From Pseudomonadota bacterium (GTDB lineage Bacteria; Pseudomonadota; Gammaproteobacteria; Burkholderiales; Burkholderiaceae): DNA of 51,683 bases. The position numbers and the translations under genes were made by a program. The notes under the pieces are model-generated. The model was not told where the DNA came from. It ran no database searches and saw only the letters and a program-made list of their open reading frames with translations. The stretch is taken from positions 1 through 51,683 of the forward strand of contig JAJXUC010000007.1 of the NCBI GenBank assembly GCA_021783435.1. Direction: 5' to 3'. Positions 15,878 to 36,401 of the stretch are shown here, piece by piece; within the stretch, counting starts at the first letter, position 1, and each line of letters begins with the position of its first letter.

Positions 15878-16162
15878 TTACGCGGCCCGCTGCATGGGCT
15901 TGATGTTCGGCAGGCGCACCTTGCGGGCTTGCCACAAGTCCCAGGCGGCTTGCATGCCCATCCATGATTCGGGCGAAGTGCCCAGCCATGCGGCAAGTCG
16001 GCGGGCCATGACGGCGGAAATGCCAGCTTGCCCATTCAGCACCTTGGATAGCGTCACGCGGGCAATGTGCAATTCTTCGGCGGCCTGCGTCATCGTCATG
16101 CCCTCGGGCAGCCATTCGCGCAGCACTTCGCCGGGGTGCGCTGGGTTGTGCATCATGCTCAC
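15878..16162 (-). CDS. HigA-family addiction-module antitoxin (orphan)
   Basis: 94 residues with H-P-G-E-V-L-R-E-W-L near the N-terminus, the hallmark of HigA/VapI antitoxins, and an XRE helix-turn-helix (T-M-T-Q-A-A-E-E-L-H-I-A-R-V-T-L-S-K-V-L-N-G) followed by S-A-V-M-A-R-R-L-A-A-W-L-G-T-S-P-E-S-W. HigA normally follows a HigB toxin; none is adjacent here. Instead its ATG overlaps the stop of another HTH gene by four bases, making it the last of four chained genes. It probably binds DNA; toxin-neutralising activity is uncertain. Confidence 0.85.
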   Translation of the reverse strand: MSMMHNPAHPGEVLREWLPEGMTMTQAAEELHIARVTLSKVLNGQAGISAVMARRLAAWLGTSPESWMGMQAAWDLWQARKVRLPNIKPMQRAA

Positions 16163-16497
16163 GCCTCCAAGCGCACCACGGCCCGCGCTCCCACGGCCTG
16201 CGCGTAACGCTGCACACTGCGCAGGGATGGCGGGCGCTTGCCGCTCTCCAGCCGTGCAACCACGCTTTGCGTTGTGCCCATGCGCTGCGCAACTTCGGCT
16301 TGCGACAGTCCAGCGCGGGCGCGGGCGGCAATCATTTCGCGGGCAATGGCGAACTCCGGCCCCAGGGCGTCATACTCGGCCCGCACTTCGGGCACGGCCA
16401 GTAGGGTGCGCTTGATGCTGTGCACAGTCTTGCCAGCGCGTGAGACGGCTAGAACTTGCATGCCCTCTGTCAGTTCGGCGGCAAGGTTGCGTTTCAT
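16159..16497 (-). CDS. XRE helix-turn-helix antitoxin-like protein with hybrid N-terminus
   Basis: 112 residues. The C-terminal two thirds is an XRE DNA-binding domain (E-F-A-I-A-R-E-M-I, G-L-S-Q-A-E-V-A-Q-R-M-G-T-T-Q-S-V-V-A-R-L-E-S-G-K-R-P-P-S-L) of the kind paired with RelE/HigB toxins. The first 25 residues (M-K-R-N-L-A-A-E-L-T-E-G-M-Q-V-L) resemble instead the start of NadS/COG2944-type antitoxins, so the protein may be a fusion of two antitoxin types. It overlaps its upstream and downstream neighbours by four bases each. No cognate toxin is present. Confidence 0.8.
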   Translation of the reverse strand: MKRNLAAELTEGMQVLAVSRAGKTVHSIKRTLLAVPEVRAEYDALGPEFAIAREMIAARARAGLSQAEVAQRMGTTQSVVARLESGKRPPSLRSVQRYAQAVGARAVVRLEA

Positions 16498-16802
16498 GCG
16501 TGCGCCTTTTCCACCCGCAGGCGCAAACCGGCTGCATGCGTCACGGCCATGAGCGTGCGCAATGTGGGATTGCCACGCGGCGAAAGCGTGCGATAGAGCG
16601 TTTCACGCGAAAGCCCGGTTTCCTCGGCAATGGCGCGCATGCCCTTGGCTTCGGCAATGCTGCGCAGGGCGGCTAGCAGTGCTTCGCGGCCTCCGGGTTC
16701 GTCGGCTTCGTCGATGGCTGCATTCAGCAGCTCCTCGGCAAAGCCTTCATCCTGCCGCAGGAGCTCGACGATGGTTTGATTCAGGGGGCGTGATGCGTTC
16801 AT
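16494..16802 (-). CDS. HI1420-type addiction module antidote protein
   Basis: 102 residues from ATG 16802. The sequence L-L-N-A-A-I-D-E-A followed by A-L-L-A-A-L-R-S-I-A-E-A-K-G-M and the HTH E-E-T-G-L-S-R-E-T-L-Y-R-T-L-S-P-R-G-N-P-T-L-R-T-L is the classic pattern of the DNA-binding antidote that pairs with HI1419-like killers. The ATG overlaps the toxin stop (ATGA at 16799-16802), so toxin is translated first and the antidote is coupled to it, the usual order for this HigBA-like class. Confidence 0.9.
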   Translation of the reverse strand: MNASRPLNQTIVELLRQDEGFAEELLNAAIDEADEPGGREALLAALRSIAEAKGMRAIAEETGLSRETLYRTLSPRGNPTLRTLMAVTHAAGLRLRVEKAHA

Positions 16803-24273: not shown

Positions 24274-25918
24274 ATGCTCAAACGCCTGACCTCGCAGCAT
24301 TCAGAACCGATTTACAGCACGCAGATGCTGCGGGAACTGGAAACTGCAGCCGTGCGCGCACTGCCCGCCCATGCCCTGATGCAGCGCGCGGGAACCGCAG
24401 TGGCGCGACTGGTGCAGGCGCGCTTTCCGCATGCTCGGCGCATCCTCGTACTTGCTGGCGCAGGCAACAACGGCGGCGACGGGCTCGTGGCCGCCACGCA
24501 GCTCCAGCGCGCCGGGCGCAACGTTTACGTGCTGGCCTGCGGCGCGGGCTCGTGGCCGCAGTGGATGGGTCGCCTGCCGCCCGATGCCGCCTGGGCCTGG
24601 GCCTGGGCCTGGGCCTGGGCCTGGGCCTGGGCCTGGGCCTGGGCCTGGGCCTGGGCCTGGGACGCGGCGCAGACGCCATGCGCCGTGCTCGCTCCGGGCG
24701 CCCCGCTGCCCGAGGCCGATCTGTATGTCGATGCGCTGCTGGGCATCGGCCTGGGCGGTCCGGTGCGGGAGCAGACCGCCGCCATCATCGCGCAGCTCAA
24801 CGCCCAAGGCCGCGCGCCGGTGCTCAGCGTGGATCTGCCCTCTGGCCTGGATGCAGACACCGGAGACGTCGCCGGGCCCTGCGTGCGCGCCACGGCCACC
24901 CTCAGCCTGCTCGGGCTCAAGCCGGGCCTGTGCACCGGGCTGGCGGCGGCGCTGTGCGGGCACGTTGTGGAGCGACGACCTCGACCTGCCCACTGACCCG
25001 GCAGCCGCCGGGCCCCGGTGCGAGGCAGGCTGGCTGGGCGCAGACCAAATCCGCCCCTTGCTGCCCGATCTGGAGCGGGCCGCGCACAAGGGACAGCGCG
25101 GCGACGTGGGCGTGATCGGCGGTGCGGCCGGAATGGCGGGCGCCGTGCTGCTCGCCGCCCATGCGGCGGCGCGGCTCGGGGCAGGCCGGGTGTACGCCGG
25201 GCTGCTCGATGCGCGGGCGCCCACAGTGGATTGCGCCGCGCCGGACTTGATGCTGCGTCCGCCCGCCAGCCTGCTGGAGACCCAGAATGCGCACGCCTGC
25301 CTGCTCCTCGGCCCCGGCGGCGGCACGGAGGCCCCCTTCCGCAGCCATCTGGCGCAAGCCCTGACCTTGCCGATTCCCCTGGTGCTCGACGCCGACGCAC
25401 TCAACCTGCTGGCCGATTCTGCCGATGCGGACGCGGCAGCGCCGCTGCAGGCCCTGCTGCGCAAGCGCAAGCAAGCCACGGTACTGACCCCGCACCCGCT
25501 CGAAGCCGCCCGGCTGCTCGGCAGCTCGGCGCGAGCGGTGCAGGCCAACCGGCTGCTGGCCGCCCGCACCCTGGCGCAACGCCATGCCGCCTGGGTGGTT
25601 CTCAAGGGACAGGGCACGGTCATCGCCAGCCCGCAGCAGCAGGTCTGGATCAACCCCACCGGCAACGGCCTGCTGGCCACGGCAGGCAGCGGCGACGTGC
25701 TCGCGGGCGCGATCGCCGCCTTGCTCGCCGTCACGGGCAAGCCGCAGTCCGTGCTCGCCGCCGTGTGGCTGCATGGCTGCGCCGCCGAGCGCTACGCCCG
25801 CTGTCACGGCGCCAGCGGCCTCACCGCAGCCGATCTGCCCCGGTGGATGACTCGCTGCTGGGCGGACCTGGCCACCGCCGACGGTGGCCAGGCGCCTCAA
25901 CCCGCCCTGCTGTCCTGA
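24274..25918 (+). pseudogene. nnr: bifunctional NAD(P)H-hydrate epimerase/dehydratase, frameshifted
   Basis: Repairs hydrated NAD(P)H. The N-terminal YjeF epimerase domain (L-A-G-A-G-N-N-G-G-D-G-L, V-D-A-L-L-G-I-G-L-G-G-P) is in one frame and ends at a TGA at 24994-24996. The C-terminal ADP/ATP-dependent dehydratase domain (G-V-I-G-G-A-A-G-M-A-G-A, V-L-D-A-D-A-L-N-L-L, T-P-H-P-L-E-A-A-R-L-L-G, N-P-T-G-N-G-L-L-A-T-A-G-S-G-D-V-L-A-G) is in the +1 frame. Dropping one G from the GGG at 24958-24960 restores continuous sequence (L-C-G-T-L-W-S-D-D-L-D-L). Both halves are otherwise intact, so this is a single-base lesion, a sequencing error, or two proteins; a TTG at 24965 could start the second half. 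Confidence 0.85.
24589..24660 (+). repeat. hexanucleotide tandem repeat (GCCTGG)12
   Basis: Twelve perfect copies of GCCTGG encode (Ala-Trp)12 in the nnr frame, in the variable loop between the nucleotide-binding loop and V-D-A-L-L-G-I-G. Because the unit is six bases, copy-number changes keep the frame. This is the only long simple repeat noticed in the window. Confidence 0.97.
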
Positions 25919-26121
25919 ATCGCCTGCACCAGCCAGTCAGCCACCGGGCCGCCATCGAGTGCTGGCGACGTGGACGCCGCAGCATGTGCCGTCAAGCCGC
26001 CTTCCCCGGCGGGCTGCGGGTTCAACGCCGAGGCGCCGCCGTCGAGGGCTGCTGTCACCACGGACGGTGGAGCGTGAACGGCCGGGCCTTGCACGCCCTC
26101 GGTTTCGATGAGGATTCTCAT
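25897..26121 (-). CDS. 74-aa peptide, last gene of the subtilase operon
   Basis: ATG 26121 has a strong Shine-Dalgarno (AGGAGAG) and lies 25 bases after the subtilase stop; the 3' end overlaps the convergent nnr by 22 bases. The peptide starts M-R-I-L-I-E-T-E-G-V, is rich in Ala, Gly and Pro, repeats A-L-D-G-G (A-A-L-D-G-G-A-S-A and P-A-L-D-G-G-P-V-A) and ends W-L-V-Q-A-I-Q-D-S-R-A-G. It has no cysteine and no signal peptide. Position, ribosome site and size suggest a substrate, precursor peptide or partner of the protease; I do not recognise a family. Confidence 0.65.
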   Translation of the reverse strand: MRILIETEGVQGPAVHAPPSVVTAALDGGASALNPQPAGEGGLTAHAAASTSPALDGGPVADWLVQAIQDSRAG

Positions 26122-26146
26122 GCTGCTCTCCTGTCATGCGCCGTGT

Positions 26147-27982
26147 TCACCAGCCGAGCACGGCGTACCGCGCCTCGACGTTCACCGGCTGCGCCGTCAG
26201 ATTGGTGATGCTGATCCAGTAGGTGATATAGGCGTCCGTGGCGCGTTCCACCTGCACCTTCCATTCGATCTGCGACCCGCCCTGTTGCGGCGTGGTCGGC
26301 ACCACCGTCCACACCACATGCCAGTGCGCAGGCCAGCGGAAGGTGAACCAGCGCTGGGTCTGATGCGCCGCCAGGCTGCCGCTGAACTGCACGCCGATCC
26401 ACTCGCGCGTCTGCAGCGCCGCAGCCGTCAACTGGCGCAGATTGGGGCGGTTGCCGATGCGCTGGGTGCGAGGCCGCGTCGGATGGTTTTGCGCATAGCC
26501 CGAGCCGGCCATGTTCGGCTGGAAGGTGAAGCCCGGCGCGTCCTGCTGCGGCGAGCCGGTGTTGCGCAGCAGTTCGATCGCGCGCGCCGGTGACAGCGGA
26601 ATGCGCCCCTGCGCGCGCAGCACACCCTGCACCGACGCCAGGGCGCCGACGACGATGGGCGACGCGCTGGAGGTGCCGCTGAACTGATCGGTGTACCAGA
26701 GGTCGCGGTTCGCGCCGCCTTGCAGGTCGCCATAGCCGGTGGAGGTCACTTCCCAGCCCCAGCCCTGCGCATCCACCCGCGCGCCGTAGTTGGAAAAGAA
26801 GCAGCGGCCGCGATCCGCATACACATCGCCCCAGCCTGGATGGGCGATGCGCCCGTGCGTGCCGGCCGGCGGCATGCCGGCACCGGCCAGCACCGCACCC
26901 GAGCTGGGGTTGGCGGGGTTGAACGGATTGGACCAGTTGGCGGGAAACCCGGCTGGCCGCATGTTGTAGACCGCGTCATCGAGGTTCTGGCCGCCGTTGC
27001 CCGCGGCTTCGACCACGATCACGCCGCGCCCCACGGCGTAGCGGATGGCGGCGAAGTCGTCCGGCCACCACTCGATGCCGATATAGCCGAACTGCCCGTT
27101 GCCCGAAGCCGCGCGCGGCCCAGCGCGGTGCACTTCGAGCAGGATGATGTCGCCCGGGCGCAGCCGGTCCGCCGCGATGCGAATCGCCTGCGCTGTGGAA
27201 TGGCTGACCAGAGACACCGCAGCCACCTGCGCATCCGGGCTGATGCCGGTGATGCCGAAGGCGTTGATGTCGCCGCTGAATTCGCCCAGCACCGCGGTGC
27301 CGTGGTTGTCATCGGCTGCGCTCACGCCGGACACCACGCCGCCTTGCGCATGGCGCAGGTCCTCGTGGTTGAAGCGCCAGCCCCACTCGACATCAATGAT
27401 GCTGACCCCGGCACCACGCCCACCCGGCAAGGTCCAGGCGTACTGCGCGTCGATGCCCGTGGGCGCGGCGTTGAGATAGAGCTGGCGCGGCGTGAAGTCC
27501 GGCGTCATGGCCGGGGGCGCGCTGCCCAGCGCGGCCATGGCATTGAGGCCGAAATCGAAATCCGCAGGCAGGGCCGGCGGCTTGACGTAGGCCGCGGCAA
27601 TGCCCTGCACCTTGCACAGCCGGGCCGCCAGCGCCTCCATGCGGTCTTCGGAAACCTCGACGCGGTAATAGATCGACAGGTCGGGAAGGGCTTCACCCGT
27701 TTCCGCTGCCGCTGCGCTGGCCTGGGCGTGCAGGCGCTCCACGCTGTCGCCGAACAGCGGCTGCAATTGCAACTGCTCATTGGCCAGCAAGGTGTTGAGG
27801 GCGCGCACATTCGCGCCGGAAGCCGAGGCCATGTCCGCGCTGTCGGTGGACTGCAGCGCGAACTCCGCGTCGGCCACGACGATCAGTTCGCTGGGGTAGT
27901 TGGAAGACGAAGCGGACGCTTCAGTCTCCAACGCGGATTTGCCGTTGCTCCCGCCCGGGCGGGCTCTGCCGGGTTTGGCCAT
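26147..27982 (-). CDS. S8 family subtilisin-like serine protease with N-terminal prodomain
   Basis: 611 residues from ATG 27982, preceded by AAAGGAGA. The catalytic triad is visible: Asp197 (V-S-I-I-D-V-E-W), His227 (D-D-N-H-G-T-A-V-L-G) and Ser438 (F-S-G-T-S-S-A-S-P); the oxyanion Asn is in V-E-A-A-G-N-G-G (N329). Residues about 30-140 form a prodomain ending I-A-A-A-Y-V-K-P-P, like the end of an I9 inhibitor domain. After the catalytic domain about 120 residues form a beta-rich tail ending A-R-Y-A-V-L-G-W. There is no signal peptide, only a Gly/Arg/Ser-rich N-terminus, so it is either cytoplasmic or exported by another route. It is fifth in a six-gene operon. Confidence 0.92.
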   Translation of the reverse strand: MAKPGRARPGGSNGKSALETEASASSSNYPSELIVVADAEFALQSTDSADMASASGANVRALNTLLANEQLQLQPLFGDSVERLHAQASAAAAETGEALPDLSIYYRVEVSEDRMEALAARLCKVQGIAAAYVKPPALPADFDFGLNAMAALGSAPPAMTPDFTPRQLYLNAAPTGIDAQYAWTLPGGRGAGVSIIDVEWGWRFNHEDLRHAQGGVVSGVSAADDNHGTAVLGEFSGDINAFGITGISPDAQVAAVSLVSHSTAQAIRIAADRLRPGDIILLEVHRAGPRAASGNGQFGYIGIEWWPDDFAAIRYAVGRGVIVVEAAGNGGQNLDDAVYNMRPAGFPANWSNPFNPANPSSGAVLAGAGMPPAGTHGRIAHPGWGDVYADRGRCFFSNYGARVDAQGWGWEVTSTGYGDLQGGANRDLWYTDQFSGTSSASPIVVGALASVQGVLRAQGRIPLSPARAIELLRNTGSPQQDAPGFTFQPNMAGSGYAQNHPTRPRTQRIGNRPNLRQLTAAALQTREWIGVQFSGSLAAHQTQRWFTFRWPAHWHVVWTVVPTTPQQGGSQIEWKVQVERATDAYITYWISITNLTAQPVNVEARYAVLGW

Positions 27983-28029
27983 GATGATCTCCTTTGCGTG
28001 GATGAAACAGAGTGAGGGAAGGGAAGGCT

Positions 28030-28302
28030 TCAGGGGGGAGCGTCGTCTGGTTTGACATAGGCGGCGACGATGGCCGCGCAGGTGCGCAGCCGCGTGATCC
28101 CCCGCTGGCTCTGCGGGGTGTCGGGCACGTCGGCGAGATAGAAGGCCTGCAGCGCCGCATCGGCCACGCCGGGATGCATGGGGCGCAGGGCGGCGCCGAT
28201 GTCCTGCGCCACTTGCAGCAGCACCTGGACATCGACATCGGCCAGATCGCGCCGCTGCAGCGCCTGCGCGGCCTGCGGGGTGAGTTGAAGGGTGAGTTCC
28301 AT
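28030..28302 (-). CDS. 90-aa protein resembling the subtilase prodomain (possible stand-alone inhibitor)
   Basis: ATG 28302 follows GGAGGA and lies 7 bases after the previous stop. The C-terminus (L-R-T-C-A-A-I-V-A-A-Y-V-K-P-D-D-A-P-P) matches the end of the adjacent protease prodomain (L-C-K-V-Q-G-I-A-A-A-Y-V-K-P-P-A-L-P). Upstream both share a weak L-(R/Q)-P segment and an aromatic-rich strand. I9-type prodomains fold proteases and inhibit them, ending in a strand that fills the active site. A free prodomain copy next to its protease would be a natural inhibitor or chaperone. The similarity is seen by eye and not scored. Confidence 0.72.
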   Translation of the reverse strand: MELTLQLTPQAAQALQRRDLADVDVQVLLQVAQDIGAALRPMHPGVADAALQAFYLADVPDTPQSQRGITRLRTCAAIVAAYVKPDDAPP

Positions 28303-28309
28303 GGCGCGC

Positions 28310-30517
28310 TTAGTCCTCCGGGTCCGGGTGCTGCTCGGCCAGGGCGAAGGCAATCAGTCCCGAGGCATCCAGCCCCAGCCGGCCGTAGCCATTGGTCGCC
28401 TTGCCGTACACGCCCAGGCTGGCGGCGAAGGCGGCGTTGACGCAAGAGCCGACCAGTTCCGTCGGCGCGAAGTCGCGCTGGTAGTCGCCTGCCACCTTGA
28501 CATAAGGCGTGGTGGTGGTCGGTGCGTTGGCGGCGGCCACTTCGACATACGGCGCCAAGGTGGAGGCCGTTGGCATGCCGTGCGAGCCGCGGGTGATGCC
28601 GAAGCCGAACACGGCGTGGTTGTTGGGATGCGCCGCGTGGTATCGCACATGCACCAGATCGCCCGGTGCGTAGCGCAGGAAGCCGCAGTCGTCGCTCGCC
28701 GCCACGCCGCTGATGCTGGGTTGCGGCAAGTCGGCGCTCACGCCGTTGTTGTCCACATGCACCCGCAGCACGTAGGCGCCACCGGCGATTTCGGCGGTGG
28801 TCGACAGCCGGGTGGTGGTGCCGTCGGCATTGCGCGCGAGGAACTGGAAGGTGGACGCGCCCGGCATGACCTGGTTGCCCGCGGGGTCGAACACTTCGAT
28901 CTTGACCTCGAACACCCCGGCATCGTCGCTGGCGTTGTCGGCCGACAGCGGCGGCGCGGCCAGCAGGGTGTTCCAGCTCGCCGCGACTTCACTCACATTG
29001 CCGCTGAGCCATTCGCTCGCCACCACCGTGCCGCCGGGGTTGGGTGGCTGCTGCGGCTTGAATTCGAACAGGCCGGTGTTAGCGCCGCGCGTGACCGGAC
29101 CGACGGGATAGCTCTCGTAGGTGGGCAGGCGCCCGCCGGAATATTCCAGCCGATAACCGCGCGCCAGCGGGGTGGTGATGGACGTCCAGCTCGTGTCTTC
29201 AGCGCCGGTGTTGGGAGTGCTGCTGGCGCGTCGGTACGCGTAGCGGTAGTACTTGATGCCGCTGGAGGGAATGAAGTAGGAGTCGTCGTGCAGGACGTTG
29301 AGCGTGCCGCCGAAGGGGGCGTTGAACAGCATGCCGAGCGAAGAATCGGAGTCGTAGTCGATCATGCCGTCGGGCCGCACCCAGCCGGCGGGGGCAGCGG
29401 GCGCGCCGGGCGGAATGCCCCAGATCGGCGCGTTGGCGATGGACCAGGGCAGCACGAACAGCGTGACCCCCGGCGGCACGCCGTAGGGCGGCTCCTCGCA
29501 GGCCACGGCGCGCGGCAGGTTGAGCACCACCTCGCTGCCGCACACATAGTCCCAGTAGGTGCCGCAGCCGATGCTCGGGCGGTAGACCGTCTGCCAGGCG
29601 CCGCCCTGGAACTGTTCGACCCAGAAGTACAGATCGGGCTGATCCCCGCAGTCGTGGAAGAACAGCGCGCCAAAGCGGCCCTGACTGTCGACGTCGATGA
29701 CGCGAAAGCAGTTCACCTGGAAGTAGCGCCAGAAATAGGCCAGATCGCAGAGGTGGATGGCGATGAGCTGCGACAGCTCGCGCAACCGGGCGCGGGTCTG
29801 CAGCGCCGAACCGGCACTGGCCAGCGCCGAAACGGCAAACTCCATGGCTTGCGGTGGCGCCGCGCTGAGGGCCGCAGCGGGCACTGCCAGCATGGCGCTG
29901 CGCACGCCCAGGAGGCCAGGAAATAGACCGGAGAATGGGCCTGGCAGTGGACCGGTCAGCGGCCCGGGGTCGGGGATGGGGATGGGTGGCCAAGGCACCT
30001 GCCGCAGTTTGTCCAGCAGGTCGTCGCGCAGCTTGAGGATGTCGCGATCCGGAATTCTGTCGATGACGATGCGGATGGCATCGACCTCGCACACATGCAC
30101 CCGGGCATGGCACACCGGCAGGGTCTTGACCGTGCCAGTGGGCAGGGTGAAGCGCTTGACCAGGCGGCCGCGCACCACGCAGCGGCACCAGCGCGGGAAC
30201 ACGGCAATCGGCATCTGCAGTTCCAGCAGGGGCCGCTCGCTCAGCAGGCGCGCAGGCTGGGCATAGGCACCCAAGCGCTGCAGTTCGGCCGCGGTCGGCG
30301 CCGCCTCCCCCTTGTCGAGCTGCGGGCCGAGAAACATCTGCAGCATCTGGCCGTTGAGTTCCGCGGGCACGTCGACCGCGGCGGCGCCCTTCTCCACCGC
30401 GGCGCTGCCGAGCAACCGGCCCTGGGCATCGAAGGCATAGGCCTGCAGCGGCGGCGCTTCCCCTGGCCCGGTGAGCTGGGCCTTGATCTGCAGGCGAACG
30501 GTTTTGTCGGTTTTCAT
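28310..30517 (-). CDS. 735-aa protein of the subtilase operon, unknown function
   Basis: ATG 30517 follows GGAGG. The N-terminal 100 residues (V-R-L-Q-I-K-A-Q-L-T-G, L-Q-A-Y-A-F-D-A-Q-G-R-L-L-G-S-A) look like a beta-sandwich; residues about 130-175 have L-P-V-C-H-A-R-V-H-V-C-E-V-D-A-I-R-I-V, reminiscent of carboxypeptidase-regulatory folds, then a Pro/Gly-rich linker (about 180-205). The middle is aromatic- and cysteine-rich (D-C-G-D-Q-P-D-L-Y-F-W-V-E-Q, G-C-G-T-Y-W-D-Y-V-C-G). The C-terminal third looks like beta-sandwich repeats. There is no signal peptide or membrane helix. It is probably structural or a binding protein. Confidence 0.8.
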   Translation of the reverse strand: MKTDKTVRLQIKAQLTGPGEAPPLQAYAFDAQGRLLGSAAVEKGAAAVDVPAELNGQMLQMFLGPQLDKGEAAPTAAELQRLGAYAQPARLLSERPLLELQMPIAVFPRWCRCVVRGRLVKRFTLPTGTVKTLPVCHARVHVCEVDAIRIVIDRIPDRDILKLRDDLLDKLRQVPWPPIPIPDPGPLTGPLPGPFSGLFPGLLGVRSAMLAVPAAALSAAPPQAMEFAVSALASAGSALQTRARLRELSQLIAIHLCDLAYFWRYFQVNCFRVIDVDSQGRFGALFFHDCGDQPDLYFWVEQFQGGAWQTVYRPSIGCGTYWDYVCGSEVVLNLPRAVACEEPPYGVPPGVTLFVLPWSIANAPIWGIPPGAPAAPAGWVRPDGMIDYDSDSSLGMLFNAPFGGTLNVLHDDSYFIPSSGIKYYRYAYRRASSTPNTGAEDTSWTSITTPLARGYRLEYSGGRLPTYESYPVGPVTRGANTGLFEFKPQQPPNPGGTVVASEWLSGNVSEVAASWNTLLAAPPLSADNASDDAGVFEVKIEVFDPAGNQVMPGASTFQFLARNADGTTTRLSTTAEIAGGAYVLRVHVDNNGVSADLPQPSISGVAASDDCGFLRYAPGDLVHVRYHAAHPNNHAVFGFGITRGSHGMPTASTLAPYVEVAAANAPTTTTPYVKVAGDYQRDFAPTELVGSCVNAAFAASLGVYGKATNGYGRLGLDASGLIAFALAEQHPDPED

Positions 30518-30580
30518 GGCGAGCCTCCGGGATGGGCGGGTGGTGCGGGGTGGTACGCAATGCGGTGGCGAGGCTGCGCG

Positions 30581-31939
30581 TCAGGGCGTGGGCGCAAGCA
30601 CGGGCGCGGGCGGGCAGCAGCGGTATTCCTGCGCCTTGTCCAGCAGATCGATCCGGCGCTTGAGCAACTGGTTCTGCAGGTCGAGCTGGGTGAGTTCGAG
30701 CTGCATCTTTTTCTGCAGTTCGGGCTCGCAGATATTGCAGTCGTCGAAACAGCCCTTGACGATGACCCCGGCCGTGGGCAGCGAGCTTTCGCGGGTGTAC
30801 TCGAACTGGGTGCGGATCTCGGTGGTGAAGCCGCCGGTCTTGGGGTCGAGCAGCCGGCGCTCGGCGAGCTGCTTGTCCACTTCGGCCAGGGCCGCCTTGC
30901 GCAGCGCGTCGCTCATGGGCGTCTGCACCGGCTCGGCGGCGGCCTGCGCCGCGCCAAGTCCGGCCGCCAGACCGAATCGGCCGACAGCCAGCAGTTGCGG
31001 CGAGCCCTGGGCGTACAGCGCTTCGCTCTGCAGCCCGCGGGTCTCGATGTCCAGGCGCTTGGCATGGGTCGCCGGCACTTCCTGCGGCATCACCGCCACG
31101 GCGCCGATGGCGCGGATGGGATTGGCCAGCACCGGCGCCGGCGCCACCGGATCGAGCACGCGGCGCTCGATGGCGACGAACTCGAAGGAGATGGTCTCGA
31201 TCTTGTTGATGCGGTAGAACAGAAACGTCAGCGCGTGGCAGGCGTTGGGGTTGGAAAACTCGCGCGACGAAGCCTCGTACTGGTCCTGGCTCTCGCCCTG
31301 CTGGTGGCTGCGGCTGGAGACCTCACCGACCGACACCGAATGCGCCTTGCGCGTGGCCTCGACCGAAAGGTTGTCGGCCATGCGCGCCTGCGCCGAATGC
31401 TGCTGCAGGTACTCGAAGGTGGACTCGGCGTTGTGGCTGCCTTTGGCATTGGCGTCGGCGCTGGCCGACATGAAGCCGATGGAGCCGCTGGCGTCGCCGT
31501 GAAAGTCCCACGAGCCTTTGTCCGTGCTGCGGCTGGAGCCGTTGTCCTGGCTGTTCTGGTCCGACATGAAGGAGCGCAGCGAGGACATGCGGTACTGCTC
31601 TTCCGACATTTGCTCACTGCGATAGCTGAGGTTGGATTCGCTGTCAAAGCTGAAGCGGCTGCGCCGATCGGTGCTGGCAAGCCGCACCTTCTCACCCGGC
31701 AGCAGCGTGGTGGTGTAGACCACATCGCCGAGCGCCAGCGGTCCCGAGCAACGTTTGAAGCGGGTGTGCAGCACCACTTCGACCAGCACCTGCTGCCCGC
31801 TCTGCGTGCGCACCGAGGTGGGAAACAGCAGCCTGCGGCGCATGTCCATGACGTCGCACACCGGCTGGGTGTCGAGGTTGGGACAGCAGGGAATGTCCTT
31901 GTACTTGGTCAGCGGGTTGGCGCTCGACGTGGTGGCCAT
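30581..31939 (-). CDS. 452-aa protein of the subtilase operon, unknown function
   Basis: ATG 31939 follows AAGGAGA; the frame is open to 32014, but that start lacks a ribosome site. The N-terminus has paired cysteines (D-I-P-C-C-P-N-L-D-T-Q-P-V-C-D-V), then G-E-K-V-R-L-A-S-T-D-R-R-S-R-F-S-F-D-S. Residues about 115-240 are a long Ser/Gln/Asp/Asn-rich stretch, followed by S-S-R-E-F-S-N-P-N-A-C-H-A-L-T-F-L-F-Y-R-I-N-K. The C-terminus contains K-G-C-F-D-D-C-N-I-C-E and a coiled-coil-like K-K-M-Q-L-E-L-T-Q-L-D-L-Q-N-Q-L-L-K. It looks like an assembly or scaffold protein. No family name can be given. Confidence 0.8.
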   Translation of the reverse strand: MATTSSANPLTKYKDIPCCPNLDTQPVCDVMDMRRRLLFPTSVRTQSGQQVLVEVVLHTRFKRCSGPLALGDVVYTTTLLPGEKVRLASTDRRSRFSFDSESNLSYRSEQMSEEQYRMSSLRSFMSDQNSQDNGSSRSTDKGSWDFHGDASGSIGFMSASADANAKGSHNAESTFEYLQQHSAQARMADNLSVEATRKAHSVSVGEVSSRSHQQGESQDQYEASSREFSNPNACHALTFLFYRINKIETISFEFVAIERRVLDPVAPAPVLANPIRAIGAVAVMPQEVPATHAKRLDIETRGLQSEALYAQGSPQLLAVGRFGLAAGLGAAQAAAEPVQTPMSDALRKAALAEVDKQLAERRLLDPKTGGFTTEIRTQFEYTRESSLPTAGVIVKGCFDDCNICEPELQKKMQLELTQLDLQNQLLKRRIDLLDKAQEYRCCPPAPVLAPTP

Positions 31940-32035
31940 GATGATTCTCCTTCGGGAGTTTCGGGGCCGCATCCGGCTGCCCCGTGCGCGCAGGCAGATG
32001 CGGCGGTTGTGCAAGAAAGCCTTGCCGCCTGAGGT

Positions 32036-32461
32036 TCAGTCGTTGCCCGCCGCCCCCCATTGGCCGGTGACGATGTTGGAATCGGCCGTGGACCCCGACG
32101 GCGCGAACGGCGTCAGGGTGATGCGGGCGTACAGCTCGTCACGGTCGGCATTGCGGAAGATGACCTCGCCGCCGATGATGATGAGGGTGTCACCGTCCTC
32201 GTCGAGAGTGCTGCGCGACACGTTGACCGCAACCTTGCGGTCCTGGCACTTGTCCGTCGCCTTGGCACAGCGGCGGCTCAGGGTGATGAGGTTGTCGTCG
32301 AAAAACGGATCGTCGCCGCGTAGCAGCACGGTCTCGACGAAGGTCGAACCCGCCAGCGCCTCGCATGAGGTGAAACAGAGTTTGTAGCTGACCGTGACCA
32401 GGCGCCGTGAACCGCCGCCGCCCTTTTGCACATGAAGAACCACGTTGCTGATCGTTGCCAT
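32036..32461 (-). CDS. 141-aa protein, first gene of the subtilase operon
   Basis: ATG 32461 follows AAGGAGAAAAAAC, the strongest ribosome site of the cluster. The sequence is predicted beta-rich: S-N-V-V-L-H-V-Q-K, L-V-T-V-S-Y-K-L-C-F-T, T-F-V-E-T-V-L-L-R-G-D-D, D-T-L-I-I-I-G-G-E-V-I-F-R-N, ending G-Q-W-G-A-A-G-N-D. It has four cysteines and no signal peptide. It is separated by 96 bases from the 452-aa gene. The upstream continuation of the frame to 32749 is not coding. Function unknown; the size and fold would fit a small structural subunit. Confidence 0.78.
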   Translation of the reverse strand: MATISNVVLHVQKGGGGSRRLVTVSYKLCFTSCEALAGSTFVETVLLRGDDPFFDDNLITLSRRCAKATDKCQDRKVAVNVSRSTLDEDGDTLIIIGGEVIFRNADRDELYARITLTPFAPSGSTADSNIVTGQWGAAGND

Positions 32462-32475
32462 GTTTTTTCTCCTTG

Positions 32476-32499
32476 CATCGGTTGAGAACATCGGTTGAG
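32476..32499 (-). repeat. 11-bp direct repeat in the operon leader
   Basis: CATCGGTTGAG (plus strand) occurs twice with a 13-base period, ending about 15 bases before the ATG of the first operon gene and just upstream of its ribosome site. It could be a regulator or translational control site. Confidence 0.7.
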
Positions 32500-32544
32500 C
32501 CCAAGAGCAGTGCGCAAAACCACCGTCCTGCGACGACGGCATTG

Positions 32545-32564
32545 GCCGGTCTGCGCCGGTCTGC
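32545..32564. repeat. 10-bp tandem repeat in the operon promoter region
   Basis: GCCGGTCTGC occurs twice back to back, one helical turn apart, about 85 bases upstream of the first operon gene. It could be a tandem binding site on one face of the helix. Confidence 0.6.
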
Positions 32565-32586
32565 AATGCAGCCCCCCCTTGTCCTC

Positions 32587-32618
32587 CGTCACCGGTCGTC
32601 ATGCGGCCGTCATGCGAT
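32587..32618. promoter_or_regulatory. three CGTCA direct repeats with 10-11 bp period
   Basis: CGTCA starts at 32587, 32597 and 32608; the last two copies extend to CGTCATGCG with exactly 11 bases between starts. SARP-type regulators with a winged-helix/BTAD output bind direct repeats spaced 11 bp. The site lies 126-158 bases upstream of the operon's first ATG, next to the gene of a BTAD-domain regulator. Confidence 0.5.
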
Positions 32619-32792
32619 CCTTGGCTGGTCATCTTCCGGCCGGCTATCGCGCAGCGATGTCTGACCCGTTCACGCCACCAGGCACTGGAGGGATCGGACT
32701 TCTCCCTGAGGCATCGTTGCATCGGCACCCGGATGAGTGCAGCCTGCATGGCCCATGGAACTCAGCTTAGGAAGTCGCCCCTCGTCACACAA

Positions 32793-32819
32793 GGTACAGT
32801 TTGGTTACATATGCGTTAC
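32793..32819. promoter_or_regulatory. three G(G/T)TAC direct repeats with exact 11-bp period
   Basis: GGTAC at 32793 and GTTAC at 32804 and 32815 recur at exactly 11 bases, inside a locally A+T-richer stretch. This set is near the 3' end of the regulator gene. It is another candidate SARP-type site. Apart from this and the repeats above, I see nothing coding in the 417-base gap 32462-32878. Confidence 0.5.
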
Positions 32820-32878
32820 CGATCCGATGTGCGGAGCTTCGGCGGCGGTCGCAGGGACGTACCGTCTTCGCGCCTCGC

Positions 32879-35800
32879 TCACCTCGTCGGCGCAATGGGC
32901 AGATCGAGCGGCGCGGGAATGGCTGCGGCGAATGCAGTCGCGTTTGCAGCGGGCATGCGGTCGATACAGTGCAGATAGGTTGCCTGTGCAGCGCGTGCAT
33001 CTTGCGGCCGGTCGAGCTCGAGGCAGGCCTCGATCAGGCCGAGATGACAGGCCTCGTCATGGGGGTCCAGCGTCAGACCGAACTGGCCGCATGTCAGCAC
33101 CCGCTCCCAGGCGCCTGCTGCGCGCCAGGACGCCAGGCCGGCGCGCAGAGCAAGCAAAAGGCGCCTGCGCAGGGATGCACGGACCGCTGCGGCCCATTCG
33201 GCGCCGCAGTCTTCCGTGAACACACCGCCTGCATGCTGCCGCAGCAGTGCGAGCAACAAATCGCCATGCTGCGCCGGCGCCGCCTCCACACGCTCCAGCA
33301 TGGCGAAAAATTCCAGCAAGTCGACGCGACAGCGATGCGTGTCGAGCGCAACTCTGCCGGCGTGGCAAAGCAAGGCATCGTGCCCGATGAGCTTGCGCAG
33401 GCGGTGCAGTGTGACCTTGAGCACCTGCTCACCGGCGGCATCGTCCAGATGCGGCCAGAGCAGGGTTGCAAGCTCGGTCCTGCGGCCCAGGCCGCCATGG
33501 GCGATGATCAGCTTGAGCAATTCCAGAGGCTTCTTCGGGATCTTGCCGCTCGCGGCCACGCTGCGACCATCGAGGGTGATGCTGAAGCGGTCGATGACGC
33601 TGATGTGCAGTGACAGCGGCCAGGCCTGTGGCACCGGCTGATCCTGCGGTGGCAGCAGCCGGCGGGCGCGGATGATCTTGCGCACGAACGCACTCTCGAT
33701 GTCCTGTTCTAGCGCGCGCGCACACAGCCTGGCGACCACCTCGCTGCGCCACCAGGGAAAGTTATGAAAACCGCAGCGGCGCCACAGTTGCATCCAGGCC
33801 GCCAGCGTCGCATCCGCGCCGGTCCGGCCTTGTTCTTGATCGAAGCCGAGTTCCAACCTGGCAAGCAGCACGTCGAAATGCACCGTGTCGCTGGCGATGC
33901 TGCTGGCCAGGCGTTCGGCTTCGTCCAGGCTGATGCGTGCGGCGCTGGCGTCGCCCTGCAAGGCCTGGCCTCGCGCCACGGCGCACAGCACCACACCCTC
34001 GGCCCAGGGCACGCCGGCTTCGCGGGCAAAGCGCAAAGCCGCCTGGGCATGGGCGCGCATGGCGGCGAGATCGGCATCGTGCAGGGCCAGCACGGCGTTC
34101 AGGCAGTGGTAGTAGCTGTGGTCGAGATGGCGCCGGGGCTGCAGGCTGCGGGCCATACGCCGCACCTGGATGCGCGCAACGTCGAGATGGCCGGTGGTCA
34201 GGCTGCACCACAGACTCTGACCCAGCAGCAGGCTGTCCCACAGATGAACGTGGCTGCGTTTGGCCAGTGCCAGCGCGGTGTCGAGCTGGGCAGTGGCCTG
34301 GGCGGCGTCGGTGTTCATCAAACCGCCGTAAATGGACTGCACCGCGAGCCAGGCGATGCGCACGGCAGGTGCATGCTGCGCGCCCGTCTCGAGCCCTGGC
34401 GCCAGCTCGGCCACCAGACGCCCGGCTGCCATGTCGCCGCGCCACCAGCATTGGTACAGCAGCAATTGCGCCGCGGCATAGGCACGCAAGGGCTGATGCA
34501 GGCAGCGCTCGGCAAGGTCCTGCATGACACCGGCCAGTGGCGCGAGGCCGGGATTGCCGGGTTGGCGGTACATCATCGCCATGAACAGCGCGAGTTGCGC
34601 GCGCTGCACCACGTCTTCGGGCAGCTTCAGGCCGGCCTCCAGCAGTCGGCTCATTTCCGGAATCCAGCGGTCCAGCGGGTGAAAGTCGCCCCACTGGTTG
34701 ATGAAACTTTCGATGATGCCGGTGAGCGCGCCCATCGCCCCCAGGGCGTCACCGCTCTCGGTCAACGCGGGATAGGCCCGCTGCAGCAGCTCGCGCGCTT
34801 CGGCCGGGGTCTGCGCCACGCTGCAAAGTCCGTCCCAGCAATCCAGCCAGGGCTGCGGCCGGACGGACGGATGCGACCGCGGCCGCATCCAAGCCTGAGC
34901 CCGTCGCAATTGCGGCGCGCTGAGCCAATCGGGGAATATCGTGGGCAGACGCCGCATCAGTTCGGCATGCAAATCATGCTGCAGCCAGAGCTCGGCGGCC
35001 TCGTCCTCGCGGCCCTGCGTCCACAGCACCGTGGCGATGCGCCGATCCATGTCGCGCAGGCGGTGCGTCCCCAAGGTCCGCAGTGCATGCTGCTGCAGGG
35101 CATCACGAAACATCGGGTGCAGCGCGTAGGCCGGGCCGGTGCCGGCATCCGCATCGCCGGCGCCACAACGCGCGACGAAGCCATGGTCGCGACACAGGTC
35201 GTCGAGCGTGGCCGCACCATCGGCCCCCGGACGCAGGCCCTCGACGAGTGCCGGGGTGATGGTCCGCAGCCGCGCCAGCTCGTCGAACATACGCAACAGC
35301 GTAGCCGGCAGGTACGGCAGCACGGCGCCGGCAAAGTAGCCGTACACGGCCTCCGTGGGCATCACCTCCACCTGCAGCAGCGGCTGCTCCAGCAGCAGGG
35401 CCAGGCCCGCGGCCCAGCCGGCACTGGCCTGCTGCATGAACGCCAGGGTTTGCGGCGCAAGCTCACGGTGGCCGTGCTGCAGCGCCAGTTGCCGGATTTC
35501 GTCGGCGCACAGCGCCAGAGCCTGCGCGTCCAGCGCCGTGGCCAGGCCCTGGCTGCGCAGCACGGCCAGGACGGGGGGCGCGGGGGCGCGGCTCAACACC
35601 AGAGCGTTGCGACCGGGGGGCAGCCGGCACAGGCCCATCTCCAGCAGGTCAATGAGCAGCGGCACATGCCTCAAGGTACGGCCCTGCGCGTCCACGTCGT
35701 CCAGCACCAGCAGAGCCTGTTGCGGCAAGCTGGCGGCCGCAGCCTCGAACAGGCGGCCGATGGCGTCGCGCAGCGCCAGCGGAGTATCGGCCGGAGGCTG

Positions 35801-36127
35801 CGGCAGCTCCGCTGGAGGCAGGCCACACAAGGCAGCGAGACCCCGTGTCAGAACGGCCAGAATCGCCAAAATATGGGCATCGGAGTCACCACGGGGCTGA
35901 CCATGGAATGCGCCTTCACCGTCTTCGACGCGCAACCACAGGCATGGTCGATGCCGCAGCCGCGCATAGCCTCGGGCCAAGGTCGATTTGCCGGCGCCTG
36001 GCACCGCGGCAAGCCAGATCAGGGGTCGGGTGCAGGCGCGGTCGAGATCCTGCAGCGCCCGCTGCGGCAGTACCACAGGACTCGAGCGCGAGTCCAAGTG
36101 CAGGAGCGGAAGGAGTTCAGCTTTCAA
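32879..36127 (-). CDS. STAND ATPase transcriptional regulator with C-terminal winged-helix/BTAD (SARP-like) domain
   Basis: 1082 residues from TTG 36127 (M-K-A-E-L-L-P-L-L), preceded by AGGAAC; GTG 36154 is an alternative, and the frame further upstream is antisense to the next gene. Walker A A-V-P-G-A-G-K-S-T is at about 41-49 and Walker B A-L-L-V-L-D-D-V-D at about 138-146, as in MalT/STAND proteins; the middle is helical TPR-like repeats. The C-terminus holds a winged-helix domain (F-S-I-T-L-D-G-R-S-V, K-K-P-L-E-L-L-K-L-I-I-A-H-G-G) and a BTAD domain. Actinobacterial SARPs carry these at the N-terminus, so the order is reversed. It lies upstream of the subtilase operon in the same direction and is its likely activator. 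Confidence 0.88.
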   Translation of the reverse strand: MKAELLPLLHLDSRSSPVVLPQRALQDLDRACTRPLIWLAAVPGAGKSTLARGYARLRHRPCLWLRVEDGEGAFHGQPRGDSDAHILAILAVLTRGLAALCGLPPAELPQPPADTPLALRDAIGRLFEAAAASLPQQALLVLDDVDAQGRTLRHVPLLIDLLEMGLCRLPPGRNALVLSRAPAPPVLAVLRSQGLATALDAQALALCADEIRQLALQHGHRELAPQTLAFMQQASAGWAAGLALLLEQPLLQVEVMPTEAVYGYFAGAVLPYLPATLLRMFDELARLRTITPALVEGLRPGADGAATLDDLCRDHGFVARCGAGDADAGTGPAYALHPMFRDALQQHALRTLGTHRLRDMDRRIATVLWTQGREDEAAELWLQHDLHAELMRRLPTIFPDWLSAPQLRRAQAWMRPRSHPSVRPQPWLDCWDGLCSVAQTPAEARELLQRAYPALTESGDALGAMGALTGIIESFINQWGDFHPLDRWIPEMSRLLEAGLKLPEDVVQRAQLALFMAMMYRQPGNPGLAPLAGVMQDLAERCLHQPLRAYAAAQLLLYQCWWRGDMAAGRLVAELAPGLETGAQHAPAVRIAWLAVQSIYGGLMNTDAAQATAQLDTALALAKRSHVHLWDSLLLGQSLWCSLTTGHLDVARIQVRRMARSLQPRRHLDHSYYHCLNAVLALHDADLAAMRAHAQAALRFAREAGVPWAEGVVLCAVARGQALQGDASAARISLDEAERLASSIASDTVHFDVLLARLELGFDQEQGRTGADATLAAWMQLWRRCGFHNFPWWRSEVVARLCARALEQDIESAFVRKIIRARRLLPPQDQPVPQAWPLSLHISVIDRFSITLDGRSVAASGKIPKKPLELLKLIIAHGGLGRRTELATLLWPHLDDAAGEQVLKVTLHRLRKLIGHDALLCHAGRVALDTHRCRVDLLEFFAMLERVEAAPAQHGDLLLALLRQHAGGVFTEDCGAEWAAAVRASLRRRLLLALRAGLASWRAAGAWERVLTCGQFGLTLDPHDEACHLGLIEACLELDRPQDARAAQATYLHCIDRMPAANATAFAAAIPAPLDLPIAPTR

Positions 36128-36401
36128 GGTGCCGGGTTCCTGTGCATGCGACACCCATGCCGACAGACCGCCATCGGCCGCATGCTTGTTGCTACCCCCC
36201 AGCTTGCGGCCTCGTCTGTGCAATCGGGTACTGCGGTGGGCCGCTGCCCTGTCCAGACATTCTGGAAGCATCCTGTCACATCGGCAAGCCGAACCCACCG
36301 ATTGAAGGGGGTGGTGCTGCGCAGGCCGATGCGTGCCAGCAAGCGCCTGCCGGCGCGGCACGACAGTGCAATGGCCGGGTCGGGCACGCCATAATGCGGC
36401 C

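What the first reader, a model, noticed from the sequence alone, without database searches (positions are those of the whole stretch)
25897..36127. Subtilase operon with its own SARP/STAND regulator: candidate undescribed proteolytic system
Six tightly spaced minus-strand genes, each with a good ribosome site (141 aa, 452 aa, 735 aa, 90 aa prodomain-like, 611 aa S8 protease, 74 aa peptide), lie directly after a 1082-aa STAND ATPase ending in a winged-helix/BTAD domain. None of the protein products has a visible signal peptide, and three are large or structured proteins that I cannot assign. Such a set suggests a regulated protease whose partners are a scaffold, an inhibitor and a peptide substrate. 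Possible roles are peptide maturation, a conditional killing or defence module, or a surface assembly; the sequence does not decide between them.
Basis: partly seen in the sequence, partly recalled or inferred. Interest (0 to 1): 0.85.

Follow-up and report, generated by a model that had tools for sequence, protein, structure and literature searches.

The report
Conserved protein pair with swappable proteases
A six-gene cluster in a Thiomonas-like bacterium combines two undescribed, cysteine-rich protein families, which recur together in distant bacterial groups, with a protein-cutting enzyme whose place is taken elsewhere by quite different proteases, which suggests a carrier pair with an exchangeable enzyme load.

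Summary
The six minus-strand genes behind a STAND/winged-helix regulator are real and under purifying selection (weakly for the 74-aa peptide; p141 not measured). The system is not subtilase-specific. Its core is p452 plus p735, two families without Pfam, NCBIfam or PADLOC match. A p735-type beta-rich partner lies within 1 kb in 35 of 80 p452 loci (kinship weak for some). Without such a neighbour, p735 is still found elsewhere in 4 of 28 p452 genomes (7 with weak hits), against 2 of 399 genomes of the order. The window's subtilase was seen beside the core only in Thiomonas; elsewhere other proteases stand there: C2, C11, C70, M6, A4, S1, another S8, possibly M35; most seem leaderless. For most p452 loci no protease is known, so the link is facultative. 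p90 is a stand-alone copy of the subtilase's prodomain, a likely inhibitor. A close relative lacks the whole 12.1-kb segment. Twice, in Rhodanobacter and a relative, a core gene sits in a contractile-injection locus. Best reading: a leaderless two-protein carrier with exchangeable protease payload. The mechanism is inferred.

The parts
32879..36127 (-). STAND-type regulator, 1082 aa (TTG start), C-terminal winged helix; SARP/BTAD-like
   Evidence: NCBIfam MalT 3.9e-12 (45 bits, far below its cut-off), Pfam Trans_reg_C only E 0.13; homologue upstream of p452 in L001, L002, L003 and, as a 483-aa protein, in L056
32462..32878 (-). 417-bp intergenic region, possible promoter/regulatory region of the operon
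   Evidence: gap measured; short direct repeats, not tested; no sigma-70-type match
32036..32461 (-). p141, 141-aa accessory protein, unknown
   Evidence: found only in L001 among 80 loci; no family match
30581..31939 (-). p452, core protein 1; ten near-invariant cysteines, paired CC motifs near both ends
   Evidence: 1689 homologues among 8000 scored candidates; 80 loci; Cys columns in 75-81 of 81; model pLDDT 61.6
28310..30517 (-). p735, core protein 2; chain of beta-sandwich domains, cysteine-rich
   Evidence: 329 homologues among 7999 scored candidates; model pLDDT 82.9, pTM 0.64; fold matches of single domains only
28030..28302 (-). p90, stand-alone copy of the subtilase prodomain; candidate inhibitor/chaperone
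   Evidence: hhalign to S8 residues 53-139, probability 95, E 2.7e-8
26147..27982 (-). leaderless S8 subtilase, 611 aa, own prodomain and C-terminal beta domain
   Evidence: PF00082 8.2e-11; D197, H227, S438 invariant in 22 sequences
25897..26121 (-). pep74, 74-aa peptide
   Evidence: 71-aa counterpart in T. delicata (L003:16035-16250), 43% identity over 69 codons, weak purifying selection
24274..36387 (.). segment absent from the closest held genome G001 (133 bp there)
   Evidence: blastn of the window against L092

Best explanation
p452 and p735 are the two structural proteins of a cytosolic, cysteine-rich assembly that leaves the cell without the Sec pathway (by lysis or by an injection device) and becomes disulfide-stabilised outside. 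The protease beside them is an exchangeable payload: S8 in Thiomonas, C2, C11, M6, A4, S1, C70 or others elsewhere. In Thiomonas, p90, a spare copy of the protease's prodomain, keeps the enzyme silent in the producing cell, and the STAND/SARP-like regulator switches the operon on under an unknown signal. Shown: gene order, families, recurrence of core with different proteases, prodomain homology, no signal-peptide-like stretch in most (crude test). Inferred: assembly, export route, payload role, inhibition, regulation.
For: Core pair recurs: beta-rich partner within 1 kb in 35 of 80 p452 loci; in 28 genomes whose p452 has no such neighbour, a p735 relative lies elsewhere in 4 (E <= 2e-105) or 7 (weak hits included), against 2 of 399 genomes of the window's order (Fisher 2e-4 and 8e-8; taxa and profile differ between the two searches). 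Proteases beside the core: S8 in the window, L002, L003, S8-VWA L050, C2 L004, C11 L008, C2 L107, C11 L011, M6 L017 and M35-like L080, the latter below cut-off, C70 L027, A4 L077 55 bp after p452, S1 upstream of p735 by 25 bp in L138 and 388 bp in L139, with C70 near it in L139. Nine of 58 called same-strand neighbours within 400 bp, against 1 of 44 control genes (Fisher 0.024). In a crude test no hydrophobic N-terminus in the neighbouring proteases tested except C70, the C11 pair being borderline (2.09). Ten near-invariant cysteines in p452.
Against: For most of the 80 p452 loci no protease is known beside the core; of the 19 loci with beta partner, DUF1360-like and 86-aa protein (18 Bacteroidetes, one Burkholderiales) only L017 is known to have one. 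Of the 58 neighbours 13 were Pfam-scanned one by one, some called ones are visibly antisense shadows, the control lists were cut at 25 of 42 and 25 of 45 families, and two control members match PF12146, named serine aminopeptidase, which I did not count. The families were noticed before the test. No assembly, export or payload relation is shown. p452 has no confident structure. Four Thiomonas genomes searched have no eCIS cap gene, so no export device is known there.
Confidence: 0.36

Rival explanations
1. Protease-activated killing, working like bacterial gasdermin systems: the neighbouring protease cleaves p452 or p735 and so releases a membrane-active form that kills the cell or stops phage.
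For: Bacterial gasdermins are reported to lie beside caspase-like and other proteases that cleave them (passages of PMC9612521). p452 has a Ser/Gly/Ala-rich middle stretch with alternating pattern, residues about 143-170 (by eye), and the weak fold rows include pore formers. STAND-type regulator.
Confidence: 0.17
2. The core is part of, or cargo of, extracellular contractile injection systems (eCIS) and has become independent in Thiomonas.
For: L055 (Rhodanobacter sp. Soil772): sigma-54 activator, p452, 92-aa protein, sheath, tube, T4_baseplate, Pvc16_N, AAA. L004 and L107 have activator, p452, p735, C2; L004 also keeps a 92-aa-like gene. Pvc16_N in 5 of 5 p735-only genomes.
Against: A sixth p735-only genome, G1009, is not among the Pvc16_N genomes; G171 was not tested. 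Pvc16_N in only 8 of 51 p452 genomes searched, 0 in four Thiomonas genomes and 0 in the L004 and L107 genomes. In the 147-genome family sample 4 of 7 p735 genomes have it against 31 of 140 others, Fisher 0.056. No sheath, tube, baseplate or cap homologue of the L055 set in any window frame.
Confidence: 0.12
3. One reading: a subtilase-centred system in which S8 matures or degrades the 74-aa peptide and the other proteins serve it.
For: Conserved order of p452, p735, p90, S8 and peptide in the window and T. delicata.
Against: Core without this S8 in most of 80 loci; S8 relatives widespread, six plasmid loci without p452 or p735; pep74 weakly conserved.
Confidence: 0.1
4. The proteases are unrelated neighbours in variable, horizontally acquired regions; p452 and p735 do something else, such as a surface or storage structure.
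For: For most p452 loci no protease is known; 18 Bacteroidetes loci have a DUF1360-like protein and an 86-aa protein beside the pair; patchy distribution.
Against: Enrichment estimate; A4 and S1 genes sit 55 and 25 bp from core genes; normally secreted families appear leaderless.
Confidence: 0.25

Closest known systems
Bacterial gasdermin operons (PMC9612521, passages read)
   Same: a constant protein beside caspase-like and other proteases
   Different: no gasdermin homology found for p452 or p735 (inconclusive test); partner is a pair; proteases include A4, M6, C2, C11; prodomain copy p90
Polymorphic toxin systems (PMC3482391, search listing and start of abstract only)
   Same: constant part with exchangeable enzymatic part; small inhibitor-like gene (recalled as typical)
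   Different: payload is a separate gene, not a C-terminal domain; core unrelated to carriers known to me
Extracellular contractile injection systems (PMC8213781 and PMC11297309, passages read)
   Same: peptidases among associated toxins; direct neighbourhood in L055 and L106
   Different: no homologue of the L055 sheath, tube, baseplate or cap proteins in the window; no Pvc16_N in four Thiomonas genomes
Peptidase-bearing NTP-dependent conflict systems (PMC7159879, passages read)
   Same: STAND proteins and trypsin, caspase or subtilisin peptidases in one operon
   Different: their effector-associated and NucA components were not looked for; core families have no Pfam match
Widespread S8 peptidase relatives (Haloferax H1, Nostoc H2)
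   Same: 57.2% and 55.6% identity to the window protease; Haloferax has the C-terminal domain both in the protease and free-standing (by reading)
   Different: no p452 or p735 in those loci

Membership tests
Peptidase S8 (window 611 aa) | subtilase domain over Pfam cut-off | tested here: met
   42.2 bits against 21.8
Peptidase S8 (window 611 aa) | Asp-His-Ser triad conserved | tested here: met
   D197, H227, S438 invariant in 22 sequences; their assignment as the triad is by recalled motifs
SARP/BTAD regulator | OmpR-type winged helix followed by BTAD domain | tested here: inconclusive
   Trans_reg_C E 0.13, TPR_19 E 0.012, no BTAD match
SARP/BTAD regulator | STAND/MalT-like ATPase part | tested here: inconclusive
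   NCBIfam MalT 45 bits, cut-off 537; Walker A-like stretch by eye
eCIS | Pvc16_N cap protein in the genome | tested here: inconclusive
   0 in Thiomonas genomes G001, G795, G1014, G1015; the window's own assembly is not held
eCIS | sheath, tube, baseplate and cap genes beside the core | tested here: not met
   phmmer with the L055 proteins against 562 window frames: no match at E <= 1e-3; among 80 loci only L055; also L106
Bacterial gasdermin system | gasdermin-fold pore former | tested here: inconclusive
   no significant sequence match in PDB; weak, non-significant fold rows from a low-confidence model
Bacterial gasdermin system | cognate protease cleaves the pore former | not testable with these tools
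   needs biochemistry
Polymorphic toxin system | constant carrier with exchangeable toxic enzyme | tested here: inconclusive
   exchange seen at gene level; toxicity and carriage unknown
Polymorphic toxin system | adjacent immunity/inhibitor gene | tested here: inconclusive
   p90 is a prodomain copy, detected in the window, L002 and L003 only; inhibition not shown
Known anti-phage defence system | match to a PADLOC model | tested here: not met
   0 families for 7 proteins at E <= 1 (models of 2023)

The most novel reading that the evidence does not exclude
p452 and p735 form a previously unknown class of leaderless, disulfide-locked extracellular particle, spread by horizontal transfer over many phyla, that delivers whichever protease its host has acquired (serine, cysteine, metallo or glutamic), with a private prodomain inhibitor in some hosts and an alternative mounting on contractile injection loci.
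Probability: 0.15. Interest if true: 0.88.

Novelty: new variant of a known kind. Interest (0 to 1): 0.6.

Why it matters
Two widespread protein families without a Pfam or NCBIfam model, p452 keeping about 40-66% identity between phyla, are a real gap in annotation. That unrelated proteases of serine, cysteine, metallo and glutamic type occupy the same place beside them points to a need for proteolysis as such, not for one enzyme, and gives a handle for experiments: the Thiomonas operon can be deleted, the closest relative without it is a natural control, and p90 predicts a specific inhibitor. If the payload reading holds, it is a new route by which bacteria export proteases without a signal peptide.

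Tried and rejected
Considered and rejected: (1) phage or plasmid gene set: p452 has no tblastn match at 1e-5 in 72,556 plasmid and 50,697 phage records; p452 and p735 no confirmed match in viral contigs. p735 was not searched in plasmids or phage records. (2) PHROGs: only the S8 has significant matches (phrog_3677, protease, 3.9e-20; phrog_9158, 6.7e-5); rows for p452 and p735 are E 0.22 and 0.11. (3) Source names: one p452 relative is called DUF2382 and one p735 relative transglutaminase-like by a source; Pfam at E <= 1 supports neither for the window proteins. (4) p735 as alpha-2-macroglobulin or transglutaminase: matches cover single beta-sandwich domains, TM about 0.1. (5) p452 as pore former or Ena fibre: rows not significant. 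(6) Regulatory direct repeats in the 417-bp gap: short and untested. (7) L040 S8 (968 aa, opposite strand, hydrophobic N-terminal stretch) was left out of the protease count as a probable unrelated secreted enzyme. (8) L085 997-aa neighbour of a p735 relative has an HExxxH-like stretch but no Pfam match.

Limits: the gene calling is a home-made script (timed out); it misses small genes and calls some antisense ORFs, and was used for the neighbour counts without removing shadows. Only one genome-contig scan was allowed, so p735 loci come from p452 loci and a few genome searches. The literature searches cannot find unnamed families; that the pair is undescribed rests on Pfam, NCBIfam, PADLOC and PHROGs.
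Full report
1. Observation. Gaps between the six operon genes are 96, 63, 7, 47 and 25 bp; the regulator is separated by 417 bp. Six of the seven genes could be compared with T. delicata and show dN below dS, pep74 only weakly.

2. Host and site. The window's assembly is not held. The closest held genome, G001, is 96% identical over the flanks but lacks window 24274-36387: 12,114 bp are replaced by 133 bp. In the genus sample 1 of 28 genomes has p452 (the two Thiomonas MAGs of L001 and L002 were not in it), in the family 1 of 60, in a phylum draw 0 of 398. The gene set is patchy; loss in G001 or gain elsewhere is not decided here.

3. Families. Pfam names only the S8 at its cut-off. NCBIfam, PADLOC and PHROGs add nothing significant for p452, p735, p141, p90 or pep74. 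p452 has 1689 homologues among 8000 scored candidates, p735 329 among 7999; the 120 listed of each carry no precomputed Pfam domain.

4. Distribution of p452. One genome-contig scan gave 139 relatives, of which 80 loci were returned. Record titles name Proteobacteria, Nitrospira, Chloroflexi, Leekyejoonella (an actinobacterium, recalled), Bacteroidetes, Chlorobi, Acidobacteria, Verrucomicrobia, KSB1 and Calditrichaeota. tblastn of the window proteins on these 80 loci finds p452 in 80, p735 in 19, regulator in 4, S8 in 2, p90 in 2, p141 in 1, pep74 in 1. With profiles and clusters, a beta-rich partner of the p735 type lies on the same strand within 1 kb in 35 of 80. Profile comparison joins p735 with the Bacteroidetes f4, L045, L080, L084 and L085 proteins (probability 98-100) and f391 (94); families f18 and f27 are linked only weakly (66 and 35), so the 35 include proteins whose kinship is not proven. 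DUF1360-like proteins are in 25 loci and the 86-aa cysteine protein in 20; 19 loci have both plus the beta partner (DUF1360 confirmed by Pfam for one example).

5. Linkage without adjacency. Of 28 genomes whose p452 locus lacks p735, seven have a p735 relative elsewhere, four at E <= 2e-105, two of these with one stop codon inside; the five control entries, one genome entered twice, all rang (profile A3). In the order of the window's kin it was 2 of 399 (profile A1). Fisher 2e-4 (strong only) or 8e-8 (all); taxa and profile differ, so this is indicative.

6. Proteases. Beside the core stand: S8 (window, L003, cut off in L002), S8 with VWA (L050, 1.1e-28), C2 calpain-like (L004, 1.3e-20; L107, 2.3e-20), C11 clostripain-like (L008, 4.2e-11; L011, 2.5e-12); M6 (L017, 1.5e-25) and an M35-like protein below cut-off (L080, 8.5e-4); C70 (L027, 2e-8); A4 (L077, 9.4e-38), S1 (L138, L139) and a second C70 (L139). 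L138 and L139 are the p735 contigs of the L027 and L028 genomes. Among 58 called same-strand neighbours within 400 bp (35 downstream, 23 upstream), nine are these proteases; 13 of the 58 were Pfam-scanned singly. Among 44 random flanking genes one peptidase (M56) was visible, with family lists cut at 25 of 42 and 25 of 45 and two PF12146 members not counted. Fisher 0.024; Poisson for eight lineages 7e-5 at the control rate, 5e-4 at an assumed 3%, 0.01 at 5%. The families were noticed before the test, so it is partly post hoc.

7. No signal peptide. By a crude hydropathy scan of the first 45 residues, the operon proteins and the proteases of L050, L077, L080, L107, L138, L139 (S1) and L017 have no hydrophobic N-terminal core; the C11 proteins reach 2.09 over ten residues, and the C70 proteins clearly have one (2.74, 3.30). 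Several of these families are normally secreted (recalled).

8. p90. Three p90 sequences align to S8 residues 53-139 with probability 95, E 2.7e-8; direct BLASTP is weak, E 0.022. Subtilase propeptides, and a propeptide-like protein of malaria parasites, are reported as inhibitors (PMC10580911 and PMC6993865, title and start of abstract only). In Haloferax the C-terminal domain of the related protease is the free-standing one (by reading).

10. Contractile-injection link. L055 and L106 carry p452 or p735 between a sigma-54 activator and an eCIS operon; Pfam confirms sheath, tube, baseplate and Pvc16_N in L055, sheath in L106, and Pvc16_N lies in the L106 contig (G885). L004 keeps activator and 92-aa-like gene with p452, p735 and C2, but its genome has no Pvc16_N. 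Overall 8 of 51 p452 genomes and 5 of 5 p735-only genomes have Pvc16_N; a sixth p735-only genome, G1009, does not. Within the 147-genome sample the association is 4 of 7 against 31 of 140, Fisher 0.056. The link is real at two loci, weak as a rule, and not seen in Thiomonas; the window holds no homologue of the L055 eCIS proteins.

11. Verdict. I favour a leaderless carrier with protease payload (0.36), with unrelated neighbourhood (0.25), protease-activated killing (0.17), eCIS part (0.12) and peptide maturation (0.10) as rivals.

Noticed in passing
window 24274-25918: The two halves of a usually fused NAD(P)HX epimerase/dehydratase (YjeF_N 4.6e-40 and Carb_kinase 1.1e-51; fusion recalled) are in different frames; a perfect (GCCTGG)12 array at 24589-24661 lies in the first, so repeat slippage may have split or may switch the gene.
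   Followed up: partly
L122:6749-7003 (Haloferax mediterranei plasmid): A free-standing 84-aa copy of the C-terminal domain of the neighbouring S8 protease, mirroring the free-standing prodomain in Thiomonas.
   Followed up: partly
L021:13625-14214 and similar Bacteroidetes loci: A DUF1360-like protein and an 86-aa cysteine-containing protein accompany p452 and the beta-rich protein in 19 loci; neither has a known function.
   Followed up: partly
L041:4846-5793: TIR-domain protein (PF13676, 2.5e-16) on the opposite strand near a p452 locus.
   Followed up: no
L085:190-3183: 997-aa protein with an HExxxH-like stretch and a cysteine-rich end beside a p735 relative; no Pfam match.
   Followed up: partly
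window 15878-16802: Two short antitoxin-like genes: a 92-aa helix-turn-helix protein and a 102-aa probable addiction-module antidote (PF21716, 1.5e-17).
   Followed up: partly
L031, L046, L052 downstream of p452: A different family of large beta-rich proteins (weak GEVED match in L031) takes the p735 place in three betaproteobacterial loci.
   Followed up: partly
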